Part shown: positions 52,304 to 58,403 of the stretch, piece after piece
Layout: the number at the start of each line of letters is the position of its first letter
Numbering within the stretch: the first letter of the stretch is position 1
DNA from: Maritalea porphyrae
GTDB lineage: Bacteria > Pseudomonadota > Alphaproteobacteria > Rhizobiales > Devosiaceae
Direction of reading: 5' to 3'
Length of the DNA stretch: 64,000 nucleotides
Assembly: GCF_027213965.1 (NCBI RefSeq)
Contig: NZ_JAPWGX010000002.1
Coordinates: 562,412 to 626,411 of the forward strand
Position numbers and translations under genes: made by a program
Notes under the pieces: generated by a model
What the model saw: the letters and a program-made list of their open reading frames with translations, nothing else
The model's database searches: none
Told to the model about the DNA's origin: nothing

Positions 52304-53455
52304 ATGTCCAAAAAAGATTTCTACGATGTGCTAGGGGTTGCCCGCGAAGCGGATGACAAGACCCTTAAATCAGCCTATCGCAAATTAGCGATGAAATATC
52401 ACCCAGATAAAAACCCTGGGGACGATGCTGCCGAAGCATCATTTAAAGAAGTTTCTGAAGCGTATGACACGCTCAAAGACGCGCAAAAGCGCGCAGCCTA
52501 CGACCGATTTGGCCATGCCGCCTTTCAAAATGGTGGCGGACAAAACGGATTTGGCGCCGATTTTTCTTCATCCATGTCTGACATTTTTGAGGATATCTTT
52601 GGCGACTTCATGGGCGGCCAAGGTGGGGGAAGACGCGAACGCAGCTCTGCGATGCGCGGCTCTGATTTGCGCTATAACCTTGAAATATCGCTAGAAGAGG
52701 CCTTTGAAGGGCAAACCGTTGATATCGACGTGCCTTCGATGGTGAGTTGCGATACGTGCGAAGGACATGGGGCCAAACCTGGCACAGGTTTTTCAACATG
52801 TGGCACTTGCCAAGGACACGGCAAAGTGCGCGCAGCTCAGGGCTTTTTCACCATTGAGCGCACCTGCCCACAATGCCATGGTCGTGGCGAAACAATGGAC
52901 CAACCTTGTACCGATTGTTCGGGCCAGGGACGCCGACAAGAATCTCGCTCATTGTCTGTTGATGTGCCAAAGGGCATTGAAGATGGCACCCGCATTCGCC
53001 TTTCAAGCGAAGGGGAAGCGGGGATGCGCGGCGGACCTTCGGGTGACCTTTATATTTTCGTTTCTATCAAGCCTCATGATTTGTTCCAGCGCGATGGTGC
53101 TGACCTTTTCTGTCGGGTCCCCATTTCAATGACCACTGCCGCGCTTGGTGGCGAGTTTGAGGTGCCTGCTTTGGGCGGAGGCCGCGCGAAAGTGAAAGTG
53201 CCTCAAGGTACACAAGCTGGACAACGTGTTCGCCTTAAGGGCAAAGGCATGCCAGTTTTGCGGTCGCAGCAAATGGGTGATCTTTACATTCAAATGGATG
53301 TGGAAACACCGCAGAACCTGAGCAAACGGCAACGCGAATTGCTTGAAGAATTTGACGAGATCACAACCAAAGAAACCAATCCAACCTCCGCGGGCTTTTT
53401 CAAGAAGATCAAAGGCCTATTTGAAGGATTGAGCGAGCACGCCCGCAAGGATTAA
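52304..53455 (+). CDS. dnaJ: Chaperone DnaJ (Hsp40)
   Basis: A 383-aa class-I J protein. The J domain starts [18 protein letters not shown] and has the HPD motif in KYHPDKNP; a Gly/Phe-rich linker follows, and the zinc domain holds four CxxCxGxG repeats ([32 protein letters not shown]). The C-terminal client-binding domains and dimer segment complete the normal length. The ATG at 52304 is chosen by homology, since upstream in-frame sequence encodes unrelated residues, and GGAG lies 10 nt before it. It acts with DnaK encoded just upstream. Confidence 0.97.
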
Positions 53456-53526: not shown

Positions 53527-54069
53527 ATGACGAAAATTCTGGCGATCTCTGGATCGATACGCAATGATTCATATAATGCACAATTGGCGCATATGATGGT
53601 GCGCCATTTGCGCGAACGTGGCGCAGATGCGGCCTATTTGGATCTCGCCAATTTTGACATGCCCTTGTTCAACGAAGATTTGCCAGCCGAACAGCAACCC
53701 GCTTGTGCTTTAAAACTGGCCAATCTCTTGGCGAATACCGATGCGGTATTCATCGCATCACCTGAGTATAATGGTTCACTAACGCCCCTGTTGAAGAACA
53801 CAATTGATTGGGTGCACCATCAAAAACTTGGCGCATTTTCTAAAGCCACTTTTGGCATTGCCTCTGTGTCCAGTGGCGCCCTTGCCGGCATTATGGCACT
53901 TTCGCATTTGCGCGATGTTCTGTCTAAAGTGGGTGCCTTAATCGCCCCGACCGCGCTTGGTGTGGGCATGGCAGCCGATGCATTTGATGACAAAGGCGAG
54001 CTTTGCGACCAACGTGTTGCCGCACGGGCACAAGCTTTGTTGCATGAGCTGATCACCATTAAACGCTGA
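53527..54069 (+). CDS. NADPH-dependent FMN reductase-family protein
   Basis: A 180-aa flavodoxin-like protein of the NAD(P)H-dependent FMN reductase family (ChrR/YieF/azoreductase group). The FMN-phosphate loop is ISGSIRNDSYNAQLA at the N-terminus and the second conserved block is FIASPEYNGSLTPLLKNTID, both diagnostic. Such enzymes reduce quinones, chromate or azo dyes in vitro; the natural substrate here is unknown. It begins 72 nt after dnaJ and ends 5 nt before the next gene, so it may be co-transcribed with that phosphatase-like gene. A GGGG box precedes the ATG. Confidence 0.9.
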   Translation: MTKILAISGSIRNDSYNAQLAHMMVRHLRERGADAAYLDLANFDMPLFNEDLPAEQQPACALKLANLLANTDAVFIASPEYNGSLTPLLKNTIDWVHHQKLGAFSKATFGIASVSSGALAGIMALSHLRDVLSKVGALIAPTALGVGMAADAFDDKGELCDQRVAARAQALLHELITIKR

Positions 54070-54073
54070 CCAT

Positions 54074-54676
54074 ATGTCTGTAGCGACCTATCTTACCCAC
54101 CCCGAAGTCAATATTGACCCCAATGTGCCAACACCTTGTTGGTCTCTGTCGAATATAGGGAGGGAGCGTCTTCAACGTGCGATTGGTCGGGGCATTTTCG
54201 ATCACATTGAATTGGTTATCGCCTCGAGTGAACAAAAAGCGTTGGATGCTGCGGAAATTATTTGTGATCGGCAAGACCTGCCGTTCCTTGAAAACTCTGC
54301 ATTTGATGAAAACGATAGATCCGGCACAGGTTTTTTGGCCGCCGACGCGTTCGACACCGTAGCTACCCAGTTTTATGAACAACCTGACAAGAGTGTTCGA
54401 GGCTGGGAAACTGCCATTGCTGCGCAAAATCGAATTGTGGATGCCGTGCATAAGTATTTAACCCAATTTGAGGACAAACGGGTTTTGTTTGTCGGACATG
54501 GCGCGGTTGGCACATTGCTGAAATGCCATATTGGAAAACGTCAGATATCGCGAGATGAAGATCAACGCCTAATGGCAGCCAAAGGTGGCGGCAATGTTTT
54601 TTCTTTCGATTGGGCTAACCGCACATTGCTTACAGACTGGGTATCGCTTGAGGATTGGCCATCTGGACAACATTAG
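54074..54676 (+). CDS. Histidine-phosphatase-superfamily protein with altered RHG motif
   Basis: A 200-aa protein of the phosphoglycerate-mutase-like fold. The N-terminal catalytic motif, normally RHG, reads TYLTHPEV: His9 is kept, but Arg and Gly are replaced by Thr and Pro. The second Arg (usually SxxxRAxxTA) is Lys55 in SSEQKALDAA, while the second His is present at residue 142 in VGHGAVGTLL. Catalysis may therefore differ or be lost; related proteins with THP are known to me in alphaproteobacteria, function unknown. It lies between the FMN reductase gene (4 nt) and the pyrF fusion gene, 69 nt before it. Confidence 0.78.
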   Translation: MSVATYLTHPEVNIDPNVPTPCWSLSNIGRERLQRAIGRGIFDHIELVIASSEQKALDAAEIICDRQDLPFLENSAFDENDRSGTGFLAADAFDTVATQFYEQPDKSVRGWETAIAAQNRIVDAVHKYLTQFEDKRVLFVGHGAVGTLLKCHIGKRQISRDEDQRLMAAKGGGNVFSFDWANRTLLTDWVSLEDWPSGQH

Positions 54677-54745: not shown

Positions 54746-55963
54746 ATGACCAAAGCTACCCCTCAATTGATCACCGCCCTTGATGTTTCCACCCGCAAAG
54801 AAGCGGAGGCATTGGTTGAAAGAATTGACGATAATGGGGTGTTCTTTAAAATTGGCTATCAGTTGATCTATGGGGATGATGGGCTTGGCTTGGCCAAAGC
54901 GCTCAAAGCGGCGGGCAAGAAAGTCTTTTGTGACGTCAAGCTTTTGGACATTCCCAACACGGTGGAAAAAGGCGTCGCTGGATTGGTTGAATTGGGCGCA
55001 GATATTGTGACCATTCATGCAGAACCTCATTGTATGGCCGCTGCCAAACGCGCAGCTGAAGGCTCAGCAACTAAGCTAATGGGCGTCACTGTGATGACTT
55101 CACTTGATGATGAGGATCTAAAAGCCAGCGGATACGCATATGGCGTGCGTGATTTGGTGGAACGCCGCGCCAAACAGGCCGCGGGCGAAGGCATTGATGG
55201 GGTAATTTGTTCGGCCCATGAAATAGAGCTGGTGAAACAGGCCAGTGGCGGCAAATTGATGGCGGTTACGCCAGGTATTCGACCAACTTTTAGTTCTAGT
55301 GACGACCAAAAACGGATCATGACCCCCACACAGGCCATTGAAATTGGTGCCGATCATTTGGTGGTTGGCCGTCCGATTTACCGTGCGAATGACCCTTATG
55401 CTGCAGCGGGTGCAGTGAACGCTGAAATTGCAGCAGCCAATGCGATCATTACCTCGATTCGCCCTGCCGATAGCGCAGACGCAGAGCGGTTGAAGGAAAT
55501 TGAAGATGATGCGGCAATGCTATTCAAACAATTGGGCGGCGCCTTTACTCAGCTAGACTATTCTGCCAAATCACCTGCATTTTACGCCAACGCTATTGGG
55601 CAAAATCAAATAATTTGGATGGCTGAAGTGCGCGGCGAGCCGGTTGGCTTCCTGCGCGCGAAACCGGTTGATGACGTTTTGTACTGTGCGGAGATTTCGG
55701 TTCTGCGCCAGCATCAAGGCAAGCGTATTGGCGAACGGCTTATCGCCCACTTTGTCGATTTTGCCAGAGCGAATGAATTTGCAGGCGCGGCGGGTGTGAC
55801 CTATGAACATGTGCCATGGAATGGTCCATATTATCTACGGCTTGGGTTCAATTTGTTGCCAGGGGACCAGATTGGGCCTGAATTGGCGCAAATTATGTCA
55901 TCTGAAGTTGAAACGGTCTTGTCTAAAGCGGGCAATCGCATAGTCTTTGGCAAACGGTTCTAA
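54746..55963 (+). CDS. pyrF: Orotidine-5'-phosphate decarboxylase fused to a GNAT acetyltransferase domain
   Basis: A 405-aa two-domain protein. Residues 1-232 are a complete OMP decarboxylase, the last step of UMP synthesis, with [13 protein letters not shown] (Asp63, Lys65, Asp68), [16 protein letters not shown] and the C-terminal [10 protein letters not shown]. Residues 235-405 form a GNAT domain beginning [20 protein letters not shown] and including [20 protein letters not shown] and [11 protein letters not shown]. The frame is open throughout, with no linker of note. Most PyrF proteins are about 230-240 aa. A TTG at 54740 is an alternative start, nearer to the GGAG box. Acetyl acceptor unknown. 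The neighbour dapB begins 70 nt later. Confidence 0.92.
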
Positions 55964-56033: not shown

Positions 56034-56834
56034 ATGCAAAAAATCACAGTTTTGGGCGCAAGTGGCCGAATGGGCCAAGCCAATATTCACGCGATTGCGC
56101 GTATTGATGGCGCGGCGCTATTTAGCGCGCTTGAGCGTGATGGTGTTGTTGCCATTGGCAAGGATGCGCGTGCGTTAGCAGGGCTTGAGCCATCCGGTGT
56201 GCTGATTACCTCAGATGTAGACGCAGCCCTTGATGGTACAGATGCAATTATTGATTTCACCGCGCCACAGGTCAGCATTGATTATGCCAAAAAAGCCCAT
56301 GAGTTGGGACTTGTGCATGTCATTGGCACAACAGGTTGGACGCGCGAAGAAGACGAAGAGATCGCTGCCCTCACCGGAAAAGGTCGTCTGGTAAAGGCGG
56401 GCAATATGTCTTTGGGCGTCAATTTATTGATGGGGTTGGTCAAAAAGGCTGCGGCCGCCTTGCCTGAAGATTTTGACATAGAAGTTTTGGAAATGCACCA
56501 TCGCATGAAAGTGGATGCCCCATCTGGCACCGCCCTCATGCTTGGGGAAGCCGCAGCTGAGGGGCGTCAAATCGATCTAGCTGAAAACGCCGTGCGATCC
56601 CGCGATGGGATTACGGGTGCGCGCAAGCCGGGCAACATTGGCTTTGCCACATTGCGCGGCGGCACGGTGATTGGTGATCATTCTGTTATCTTTGCAGGCA
56701 GCAACGAGCGGATTGAATTAAGCCACTCGGCCCAAGACCGCTCGATTTTTGCAAATGGCGCTATTCACGCTTCACTTTGGGCGCAAGATAAAGCGCCCGG
56801 ACTTTATTCGATGGCCGACGTACTTGGCCTTTAA
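56034..56834 (+). CDS. dapB: 4-hydroxy-tetrahydrodipicolinate reductase
   Basis: A 266-aa NAD(P)H-dependent reductase of the lysine and meso-diaminopimelate pathway, supplying peptidoglycan and lysine. The N-terminal dinucleotide-binding GASGRMGQ follows MQKITVL; the catalytic motif is [16 protein letters not shown], and VIGTTGWT and [13 protein letters not shown] are also present. The ATG at 56034 is chosen because it gives the family N-terminus; longer in-frame starts at 55998 and further upstream are possible. It is followed by gpmA after 27 nt, the conserved order in Hyphomicrobiales. Confidence 0.96.
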
Positions 56835-56861: not shown

Positions 56862-57479
56862 ATGGATCGCAGACTAATATTGGTTCGTCACGGACAAAGC
56901 GAATGGAACTTGAAAAACCTCTTCACAGGCTGGAAAAACCCAGGTCTGACCGAAAAGGGCGTTGAGGAAGCTATTGCTGCTGGCAAATTGCTCAAATCAC
57001 GCGGCTACGAGATAGAAGTTTGCTACACGTCCGCCTTGGCACGTGCCCAACGCACTCTGGATTTGATGCTTGAGAATATGGATATCGTCAATATGACGAT
57101 TATTCGCAACCAAGCATTGAATGAGCGCGACTATGGTGATCTTGCAGGGCTAAATAAAGACGATGCCCGTGAAAAATGGGGCGAAGAGCAAGTCCACATT
57201 TGGCGCCGCTCGTTTGATGTGCCGCCTCCAGGGGGTGAAAGCTTGAAAGATACCGCAGAGCGTGTTCTCCCCTATTATGAGGCTGAAATTGCCCCACGTG
57301 TCGCTGATGGTGGCACAATATTGGTGGCGGCGCACGGTAACTCGCTGCGCGCTTTGGTGATGAAGCTTGAGAATCTCAGCCCAGAGGAAATTCTCAAACG
57401 CGAAATCGCTACCGGCAAACCGATCATTTATGATTTTGATGCTGATGGAAACGTGACAAACGTTGAGAACATCGACTAA
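56862..57479 (+). CDS. gpmA: 2,3-bisphosphoglycerate-dependent phosphoglycerate mutase
   Basis: A 205-aa dPGM that interconverts 3- and 2-phosphoglycerate in glycolysis and gluconeogenesis. The RHG motif is [10 protein letters not shown] (Arg9, His10), followed by [47 protein letters not shown] and the second His in [16 protein letters not shown]. Length matches the short alphaproteobacterial GpmA. It starts 27 nt after dapB with AAGGA upstream of the ATG, and ends at a Rho-independent terminator. Confidence 0.96.
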
Positions 57480-57530: not shown

Positions 57531-58403
57531 CTATTCGGCGCCCCCTACCAGCCCCGCTTCCCAACCCAAAATCGCTTGCTTTCGGGTTAAACCCCAGTGA
57601 TATCCGGTGAGCTTTGCGTTTTTGCCAATCACCCGATGGCATGGCACCACAAATGATATGGGATTGCGCCCGATAGCAGCGCCCACGGCGCGGGCGGCTT
57701 TGGGGTTGCCTATGTGGGTGGCGATTTCGCCATAGCTGGTCGCCTGCCCCGGTTTGATGCGCAACAGAGTTTGCCACACGCGCACTTCAAAGTCGGTCCC
57801 GATCATCACGATCTTAATGGGTTGGTCTTGGTGCCATTTTTTGGGGTCAAAGATCTTTTCGGCCCATCGGCGGATTTCATCTGGCTGTGCTTTTAGGTAA
57901 ATCGCTTTGGGCCAACGCCGTGTCATATCCTCTAACGCGGCTCGTTCTTCGCCCTCGTCGCAAAAAGCCTGCCCCGCCAAGCCATAATCTGTGAGCATGA
58001 TCAATACTTGCCCAAAAGGGGATGGATGAAAACCATATCTGATTTCTAAACCTTCGCCCTTGGCCTTATAAACGCCCGGTGGCATTGCATCATGGGTGAC
58101 AAACAAATCATAGAGCCGCGCCGCCGAGGAAAGGCCAAGCTCATAGCTGGTGTCGAGCAATGGCACATTTTCTTTCAGCATTTGGCGGGCCCTGTTTAAA
58201 GTGACGCATTGTGAGAAGGCTTTAGGGGTTAGCCCCGCCCAGCGTTTAAACAAGGCTGTAAGTTGACGAGGTGACATGCCCATATCACGGGCAAGTGCAT
58301 CAAAGTCGTGTTCGTCCGCCGGGCGCGCGGAAATTTCCTCGATCACTTTTGTGATCACCGAGTAGTCTCTGGCTTGCGCAAGTAAGGGGGTCATATCGTT
58401 CAT
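57531..58403 (-). CDS. AraC-type regulator fused to methylated-DNA-cysteine S-methyltransferase (Ada-like)
   Basis: A 290-aa protein combining an N-terminal AraC-type helix-turn-helix (MSPRQLTALFKRWAGLTPKA) with a C-terminal Ogt/MGMT domain. The active-site motif PCHRV has Cys255, and the region RVWQTLLRIKPGQATSYGEI is the DNA-binding part of the methyltransferase. The Ada N-terminal zinc domain that repairs methylphosphotriesters and triggers the adaptive response is absent, so the mode of activation must differ. It repairs O6-alkylguanine. It is divergent from nth and convergent with gpmA. Confidence 0.9.
   Translation of the reverse strand: MNDMTPLLAQARDYSVITKVIEEISARPADEHDFDALARDMGMSPRQLTALFKRWAGLTPKAFSQCVTLNRARQMLKENVPLLDTSYELGLSSAARLYDLFVTHDAMPPGVYKAKGEGLEIRYGFHPSPFGQVLIMLTDYGLAGQAFCDEGEERAALEDMTRRWPKAIYLKAQPDEIRRWAEKIFDPKKWHQDQPIKIVMIGTDFEVRVWQTLLRIKPGQATSYGEIATHIGNPKAARAVGAAIGRNPISFVVPCHRVIGKNAKLTGYHWGLTRKQAILGWEAGLVGGAE

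What the first reader, a model, noticed from the sequence alone, without database searches (positions are those of the whole stretch)
54746..55963. PyrF (OMP decarboxylase) fused in frame to a GNAT acetyltransferase
The frame encodes a complete OMP decarboxylase (DxKxxDI, GRPI and IRP motifs all present), then passes without stop or long linker into a GNAT domain of about 170 residues. PyrF is normally a stand-alone enzyme of about 230-240 aa, or fused to orotate phosphoribosyltransferase. I know of no characterised PyrF-GNAT protein. The GNAT part keeps the core motifs ([39 protein letters not shown]). It could acetylate PyrF, a nucleotide intermediate, or an unrelated substrate, or be a simple gene fusion.
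Basis: partly seen in the sequence, partly recalled or inferred. Interest (0 to 1): 0.7.

Follow-up and report, generated by a model that had tools for sequence, protein, structure and literature searches.

The report
PyrF-acetyltransferase fusion in Maritalea bacteria
In the marine bacterial genus Maritalea the enzyme that makes UMP is joined end to end with an acetyltransferase that is still a separate neighbouring gene in some related bacteria; the joint protein is real and conserved, but what the acetyltransferase half modifies is unknown.

Summary
Window 54746-55963 (+) is one 405-codon frame: a complete OMP decarboxylase (PyrF, aa 1-234) followed without linker by a complete GNAT acetyltransferase of the PA2271 type (aa 235-405). 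It is the only OMPdecase match in the genome. The same uninterrupted, indel-free fusion is in 6 of 6 sampled genomes of the genus, which named records identify as Maritalea (Devosiaceae), so it is not a sequencing error. Both halves are under purifying selection (dN/dS about 0.03 and 0.12-0.15). The split form exists: two other genera of the family have pyrF and a separate GNAT gene overlapping by 4 bases, between dnaJ and dapB, and 14 sampled genomes in four other families have such a GNAT beside pyrF. No other fusion showed in the samples searched (397 genomes of the order, 385 of the class, 398 of the phylum; capped lists, strict cut-offs). Most likely a translationally coupled neighbour pair lost the stop between them in the Maritalea ancestor; the product is a bifunctional enzyme whose halves work independently. 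The acetyl acceptor is unknown; a tie to pyrimidine metabolism, hinted at by the linkage, is not shown. It is a new domain combination of two known families.

The parts
54746..55963 (+). pyrF-GNAT fusion gene, 405 aa plus stop
   Evidence: translation, Pfam and NCBIfam, same fusion in 6 of 6 genus genomes
54746..55447 (+). PyrF (OMP decarboxylase) domain, aa 1-234; tetrad K35, D63, K65, D68 and phosphate-site R209 (residue roles recalled)
55448..55960 (+). PA2271-type GNAT domain, aa 235-405
55715..55732 (+). acetyl-CoA loop Q324-G329 (QGKRIG) of the GNAT; arginine at the fourth place in 33 of the 125 aligned GNATs
   Evidence: loop role recalled
55832..55834 (+). Tyr363, candidate general acid of the GNAT
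   Evidence: tyrosine in 125 of 125 aligned GNATs, the six fused ones included; role recalled
52304..53455 (+). dnaJ, upstream syntenic gene
   Evidence: Pfam
53527..54069 (+). NADPH-dependent FMN reductase-like gene
   Evidence: Pfam FMN_red E 3.9e-34
54074..54676 (+). histidine-phosphatase-like gene
   Evidence: Pfam His_Phos_1 E 4.9e-09
56034..56834 (+). dapB, downstream syntenic gene
   Evidence: Pfam DapB_N and DapB_C
56862..57479 (+). gpmA-like gene
   Evidence: Pfam His_Phos_1 E 4.8e-42; the name gpmA is recalled

Best explanation
A genuine bifunctional protein, fixed in the genus Maritalea. Shown: complete PyrF and complete PA2271-type GNAT in one frame, conserved in 6 of 6 genomes and under purifying selection in both halves. 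Inferred: the ancestor had pyrF and a GNAT gene as translationally coupled neighbours in the dnaJ-FMN reductase-phosphatase-pyrF-GNAT-dapB stretch, much as two other genera of the family still have; a small deletion or frame change over the overlap removed the stop and joined them. Inferred: PyrF remains the cell's only OMP decarboxylase and, like its family, works as a dimer, so two GNAT domains hang on its C-terminal helices; the GNAT uses acetyl-CoA to acetylate a small amine acceptor independently of PyrF, and the fusion mainly fixes co-expression at 1:1.
For: Single uninterrupted ORF; profile hits for both families over cut-off; only OMPdecase match in the genome, with pyrE present. Fusion in 6 of 6 Maritalea genomes, 405 aa each, no indel. 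dN/dS in the three usable pairs: GNAT 0.14, 0.15, 0.12; PyrF 0.026, 0.030, 0.033. Split form with GTGA overlap in G106 and G002. In the dnaJ/pyrF/dapB/gpmA tree these two genera and Maritalea lie outside a 12-row clade of family members without the GNAT (support 86/98). Model: both domains complete, no linker. Tyr363 in 125 of 125 aligned GNATs.
Against: No activity is shown for either half. The GNAT half has a dN/dS about four to five and a half times that of PyrF. The GNATs of G106 and G002 are only 30% identical to the window's and do not group with the fused ones in the 125-row tree; one clade is not rejected (p 0.19) but has no support either, and in the 125-row tree the fused GNATs sit next to GNATs of family f51 that have no pyrF in their stretches (80/29, flagged as a long-branch join). 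So the separate GNAT of the sister genera may not be the direct forerunner. The branching order of the three genera is unresolved. Linkage to pyrF in several families argues for some functional tie, against pure independence.
Confidence: 0.6

Rival explanations
1. The GNAT acts in pyrimidine metabolism: it acetylates a pathway metabolite or a pyrimidine-like toxic nucleoside, and the fusion brings it to the place where UMP is made.
For: GNATs of this type lie beside pyrF in 14 sampled genomes of four other families as well as in two genera of this family; in f40, f34 and f13 with a DUF1330 gene between. Gene fusion is commonly taken as a sign of a functional link (so the abstract of PMC3155505, seen in the listing). 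After PA2271 the solved relatives include a putative streptothricin and a nourseothricin acetyltransferase.
Against: OMP and UMP carry no free aliphatic amine (recalled chemistry). Many relatives of this GNAT lie elsewhere: in 29 of 40 fetched stretches no PyrF is in the stretch, and 0 of 75 non-Maritalea loci of the genome scan have pyrF nearby (the best 80 of 254 loci only). Within f44 the GNAT is patchy: six f44 genomes have only weak matches. No random-gene control for the linkage was run. The drug-acetyltransferase matches are weak.
Confidence: 0.2
2. The GNAT regulates PyrF by acetylating it, in cis or in trans, for instance at the catalytic lysine.
For: No linker, so both domains are held close; GNATs that acetylate metabolic enzymes exist (recalled).
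Against: The solved relatives bear names of small-molecule, ribosomal-protein or unassigned acetyltransferases, none of an enzyme-lysine acetyltransferase. 13 of 16 sampled genera of the family show no close relative of this GNAT (best 97.7 bits, in G092), so PyrF does without it there.
Confidence: 0.12
3. The GNAT half is a decaying passenger trapped by the fusion.
For: Faster evolution: 44-52% identity between the two Maritalea subgroups against 81-84% for PyrF; of the six fused copies only the window's has arginine in the acetyl-CoA loop.
Against: dN/dS 0.12-0.15, no stop or indel in six genomes; catalytic tyrosine and fold kept; the same arginine occurs in 33 of 125 aligned GNATs.
Confidence: 0.07
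4. Assembly or sequencing artefact at the junction.
For: None found; split genes do exist in relatives.
Against: Same joint in six assemblies, four of them of named strains.
Confidence: 0.01

Closest known systems
OMP decarboxylase PyrF (PF00215; PRK00230)
   Different: Carries a C-terminal GNAT domain; no PyrF match of another genus of the family runs past query residue 267, and the six PyrF C-termini printed end just after the last helix
GNAT acetyltransferase PA2271 of Pseudomonas aeruginosa (9cr5)
   Different: The solved PA2271 chain is a single domain of 174 residues; 31% identical; no paper with that name and 'acetyltransferase' in the library
Separate pyrF and GNAT genes of other Devosiaceae genera (G106, G002)
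   Same: Same place between dnaJ and dapB, same order and strand
   Different: Two ORFs with a stop and a GTGA overlap; GNAT only 30% identical
Bifunctional OPRT-OMP decarboxylase (UMP synthase; recalled)
   Same: PyrF as one half of a bifunctional protein
   Different: There the partner is the preceding pathway enzyme; here it is an acetyltransferase with no known place in the pathway

Membership tests
OMP decarboxylase (PyrF) | Profile match over the curated cut-off | tested here: met
   PF00215 188.3 bits (cut-off 27), PRK00230 258.8 (cut-off 193)
OMP decarboxylase (PyrF) | Catalytic Lys/Asp residues in FKIG and DxKxxDI and phosphate-site GRPI | tested here: met
   K35, D63, K65, D68, R209 present and invariant in 6 of 6; roles recalled
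OMP decarboxylase (PyrF) | Decarboxylates OMP to UMP | not testable with these tools
   Only OMPdecase match in a genome that has pyrE
GNAT acetyltransferase | GNAT fold and profile match over cut-off | tested here: met
GNAT acetyltransferase | Acetyl-CoA loop Q/R-x-x-G-x-G/A (recalled) | tested here: inconclusive
   Window QGKRIG departs at the fourth place; 33 of 125 aligned GNATs have R there, the other five Maritalea have G
GNAT acetyltransferase | Catalytic tyrosine near the C-terminal end of the core (recalled) | tested here: met
   Tyr363, 125 of 125 aligned GNATs
GNAT acetyltransferase | Transfers acetyl from acetyl-CoA to an amine | not testable with these tools
   No assay
PA2271-type GNAT group | Closest to PA2271 over the full domain, VP[WF]NGP[YW]Y motif | tested here: met
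   the group is my own, not a curated family

The most novel reading that the evidence does not exclude
The fusion exposes a so far unknown functional pair: an orphan GNAT group that was set beside pyrF in several lineages because it acts on the pyrimidine pathway, either on PyrF itself or on a pyrimidine-like metabolite or toxin, with Maritalea having made the pair into one enzyme.
Probability: 0.25. Interest if true: 0.65.

Novelty: new variant of a known kind. Interest (0 to 1): 0.36.

Why it matters
It is a fixed natural fusion of a central, normally single-purpose enzyme with an acetyltransferase of unknown substrate, and overlapping separate genes are still present at the same place in relatives. 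The fusion and the pyrF-GNAT neighbourhood in several families give a concrete, testable lead to the substrate of an orphan GNAT group (PA2271-like), and a ready case of how coupled genes become one protein.

Tried and rejected
Sequencing error at the junction: rejected. Broken acetyl-CoA loop in the window's copy: looked suspicious (QGKRIG), but 33 of 125 aligned GNATs have R at that place, so it is not used as strong evidence of decay. One shared origin of all pyrF-linked GNATs: rejected by the AU test when the f40 GNATs are included (p 0.0056) or all linked ones (p 0.0043); not rejected for Devosiaceae alone (p 0.19), for fused + Devosiaceae split + f44 (p 0.11) or fused + f44 (p 0.31); long branches make all of these weak, and the f44 set holds one row (L152) with no pyrF in its stretch. 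G302's match that ran past residue 300 proved to be pyrF with no GNAT behind it. Internal start for a separate GNAT: none shared by 6 of 6; not excluded for single species. For 16 unlinked relatives I listed neighbour positions only and did not scan their families. Viral contigs: no relative. Promoter- and terminator-like patterns around the genes were about as frequent as in shuffles (6 against 5.7; 8 against 6.9). Papers: PA2271, PyrF-GNAT in several wordings: no listed title or abstract start is on such a fusion; I saw listings only, opened none, and did not check the passages where the words occur. Maritalea (30 papers, 15 listed): nothing on this gene in the listing. The plain Foldseek search of the PDB never ran because the machine was busy; the VIA-align second look was used. 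Limits: searches list only part of their matches; searches used strict cut-offs (1e-55, 1e-45), so a fusion of a distant PyrF, or one with an unrelated GNAT, could be missed; the order, class and phylum sets are samples that overlap; the genome scan kept the best 80 of 254 loci.

Full report
OBSERVATION. The frame 54746-55963 (+) gives 405 aa without an internal stop. Pfam finds OMPdecase at aa 6-222 (E 2.3e-55) and Acetyltransf_1 at aa 270-368 (E 5e-11), both over their cut-offs; NCBIfam names the first half PyrF (PRK00230, 258.8 bits, cut-off 193). It is the only OMPdecase match in the 3.6 Mb genome, in which pyrE is also found. ATG 54746 is the likely start: a GCCGGAG stretch precedes it in 6 of 6 Maritalea genes; the ORF list would also allow a TTG two codons earlier.

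THE FUSION IS FIXED IN A GENUS. Of 136 genomes of the family, 129 match the protein. In 6 of 6 genomes of the window's genus (G000, G111-G115) the match runs from 1 to 405 without stop or indel; the other five are 67-80% identical to the window. The genome scan (best 80 of 254 loci kept) returned the same contigs under names: Maritalea porphyrae NBRC 107169, an uncultured Maritalea MAG, M. mediterranea P4.10X, M. myrionectae DSM 19524 and M. mobilis CGMCC 1.7002 (contig lengths equal those of G114, G115, G111, G113, G112). The tree tool lists them under Devosiaceae. In the other 15 genera no PyrF match runs past query residue 267.

SELECTION. In the three pairs with usable dS (mediterranea, myrionectae, mobilis) dN/dS is 0.14, 0.15 and 0.12 for the GNAT half and 0.026, 0.030 and 0.033 for PyrF (ratios worked out from the printed dN and dS; one of the GNAT dS values is 1.03). 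In the other 12 of 15 pairs every dS is above 1.2 or could not be computed. The GNAT half is therefore constrained, but less than PyrF.

SPLIT FORM AND GENE ORDER. The window order is dnaJ - FMN reductase - histidine-phosphatase-like - pyrF-GNAT - dapB - gpmA-like. In two other genera of the family a separate GNAT gene lies between pyrF and dapB: G106 (L032) and G002 (L033), found by pairwise search at E 3.7e-17 and 1.2e-15, both with a GTG start that overlaps the pyrF stop TGA by four bases. With the GNAT profile A2, 8 of 136 family genomes exceed 190 bits, the six Maritalea and these two; all eight are rows of A2, so their scores are by construction, but no other genome comes near (next best 97.7 bits, in G092 at a place without pyrF). 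A tree of four joined proteins (25 rows; family rows from 13 of the 16 genera) places G106, G002 and Maritalea outside a clade of 12 family rows without the GNAT (86/98, below the tool's star), with the order among the three unresolved. The simplest reading is an ancestral pair, fused in Maritalea, and lost in the branch that leads to the other sampled genera.

WIDER LINKAGE. In 397 genomes of the order the profile has matches at E <= 1e-8 in 213. I fetched 40 of these GNAT places besides three found earlier (L052, L054, L056, which are rows of A2). PyrF lies in the same stretch, upstream and on the same strand, in 11 of 40 plus those three: eight genomes of family f44, three of f40, two of f34 and one of f13; in 29 of 40 no PyrF lies in the stretch of about 4-6.5 kb, some of which end at a contig end. 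A DUF1330 gene stands between pyrF and the GNAT in one locus each of f40, f34 and f13 that I scanned, and the ORF lists of three further f40 and f34 loci look alike. Within f44 the GNAT is patchy: G280, G305, G412, G438, G451 and G474 have only weak matches (E 9e-9 to 8e-11). The four families are known here only by code. In the genome scan, 0 of 75 non-Maritalea loci have pyrF near. No control with random genes was run, so the excess of linkage is a judgement, not a test.

PHYLOGENY OF THE GNATS. The fused GNATs form one clade (100/97 in 125 rows; 100/100 in 61 rows; the 61-row set keeps 11 of the 75 named non-Maritalea loci). L149 was left out of both trees as too short. Deep branches are poorly resolved and long. 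In the 125-row tree the fused rows join unlinked GNATs of family f51 (80/29, flagged by the tool as a possible long-branch artefact), and L032 and L033 join actinobacterial rows. One clade of fused + Devosiaceae split rows is not rejected (p 0.19), nor fused + split + f44 (p 0.11) or fused + f44 (p 0.31); adding f40 is rejected (p 0.0056), as are all linked rows (p 0.0043). So either the pyrF-GNAT neighbourhood arose more than once, or the alignment cannot resolve it.

NO OTHER FUSION SEEN. In the order sample (397 genomes) the listed matches that pass residue 300 are G000, G114, G506 (two stops; split genes) and G302 (two stops; no GNAT); lower-scoring matches were not listed. In 385 genomes of the class, 6 match at E <= 1e-55 and only the window's genome spans both halves. 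In 398 of the phylum, 87 match at E <= 1e-45 and none but the window's genome passes residue 265. These sets overlap. Viral contigs gave no relative.

CATALYTIC RESIDUES. PyrF K35, D63, K65, D68 and R209 are invariant in 6 of 6 (roles recalled). In the GNAT, Tyr363 is tyrosine in 125 of 125 aligned GNATs, and the acetyl-CoA loop is QGKRIG in the window, QGKGLG or HGKGLG in the other five; R at that place occurs in 33 of 125.

FUNCTION. The closest solved relative of the GNAT, PA2271, has no paper in the library under that name. The next ones by profile are a putative streptothricin acetyltransferase (3pp9, E 1.2e-13) and an S18-alanine acetyltransferase (9mto, 2.4e-11), with nourseothricin acetyltransferase further down (5c82, 7.8e-07). 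I commit to an independent small-molecule acetyltransferase tethered to PyrF, at modest confidence, because nothing in OMP or UMP offers a free amine (recalled chemistry) and many relatives live away from pyrF; the linkage in several families keeps a pyrimidine-related role open.

LITERATURE. Searches listed no title or abstract on a PyrF-GNAT protein; I saw search listings only and opened no paper. The statement that PyrF is otherwise fused to OPRT is recalled.

Noticed in passing
window 54074-54676 and 10 related loci: The histidine-phosphatase-like gene before pyrF has [TS]HP in place of the usual RHG motif (recalled), in the window and in 9 of 10 related loci printed (the tenth, L038, shows a shortened start), so it may not be an ordinary phosphatase.
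   Followed up: partly
L039 6467-7093 (Maritalea mobilis): The same gene appears as two separate ORFs in M. mobilis, perhaps a broken gene or a sequencing error.
   Followed up: no
L037 (Maritalea mediterranea): dnaJ, the FMN reductase and the phosphatase-like gene are not found upstream of the pyrF fusion within the stretch, unlike in L035, L038 and L039.
   Followed up: no
order sample, family f10: Eleven listed f10 genomes have no match to the fusion at E <= 0.001 and six have one at only 2e-15 to 2e-17; those six also have strong stand-alone GNATs of this type, so the weak matches may be to the GNAT half, and f10's OMP decarboxylase may belong to another group.
   Followed up: no
window 57531-58403 (-): A converging gene joins an AraC-type HTH to a methylguanine methyltransferase domain (Ada-like); a relative lies in 15 of the 19 pyrF stretches of the family annotated.
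   Followed up: no
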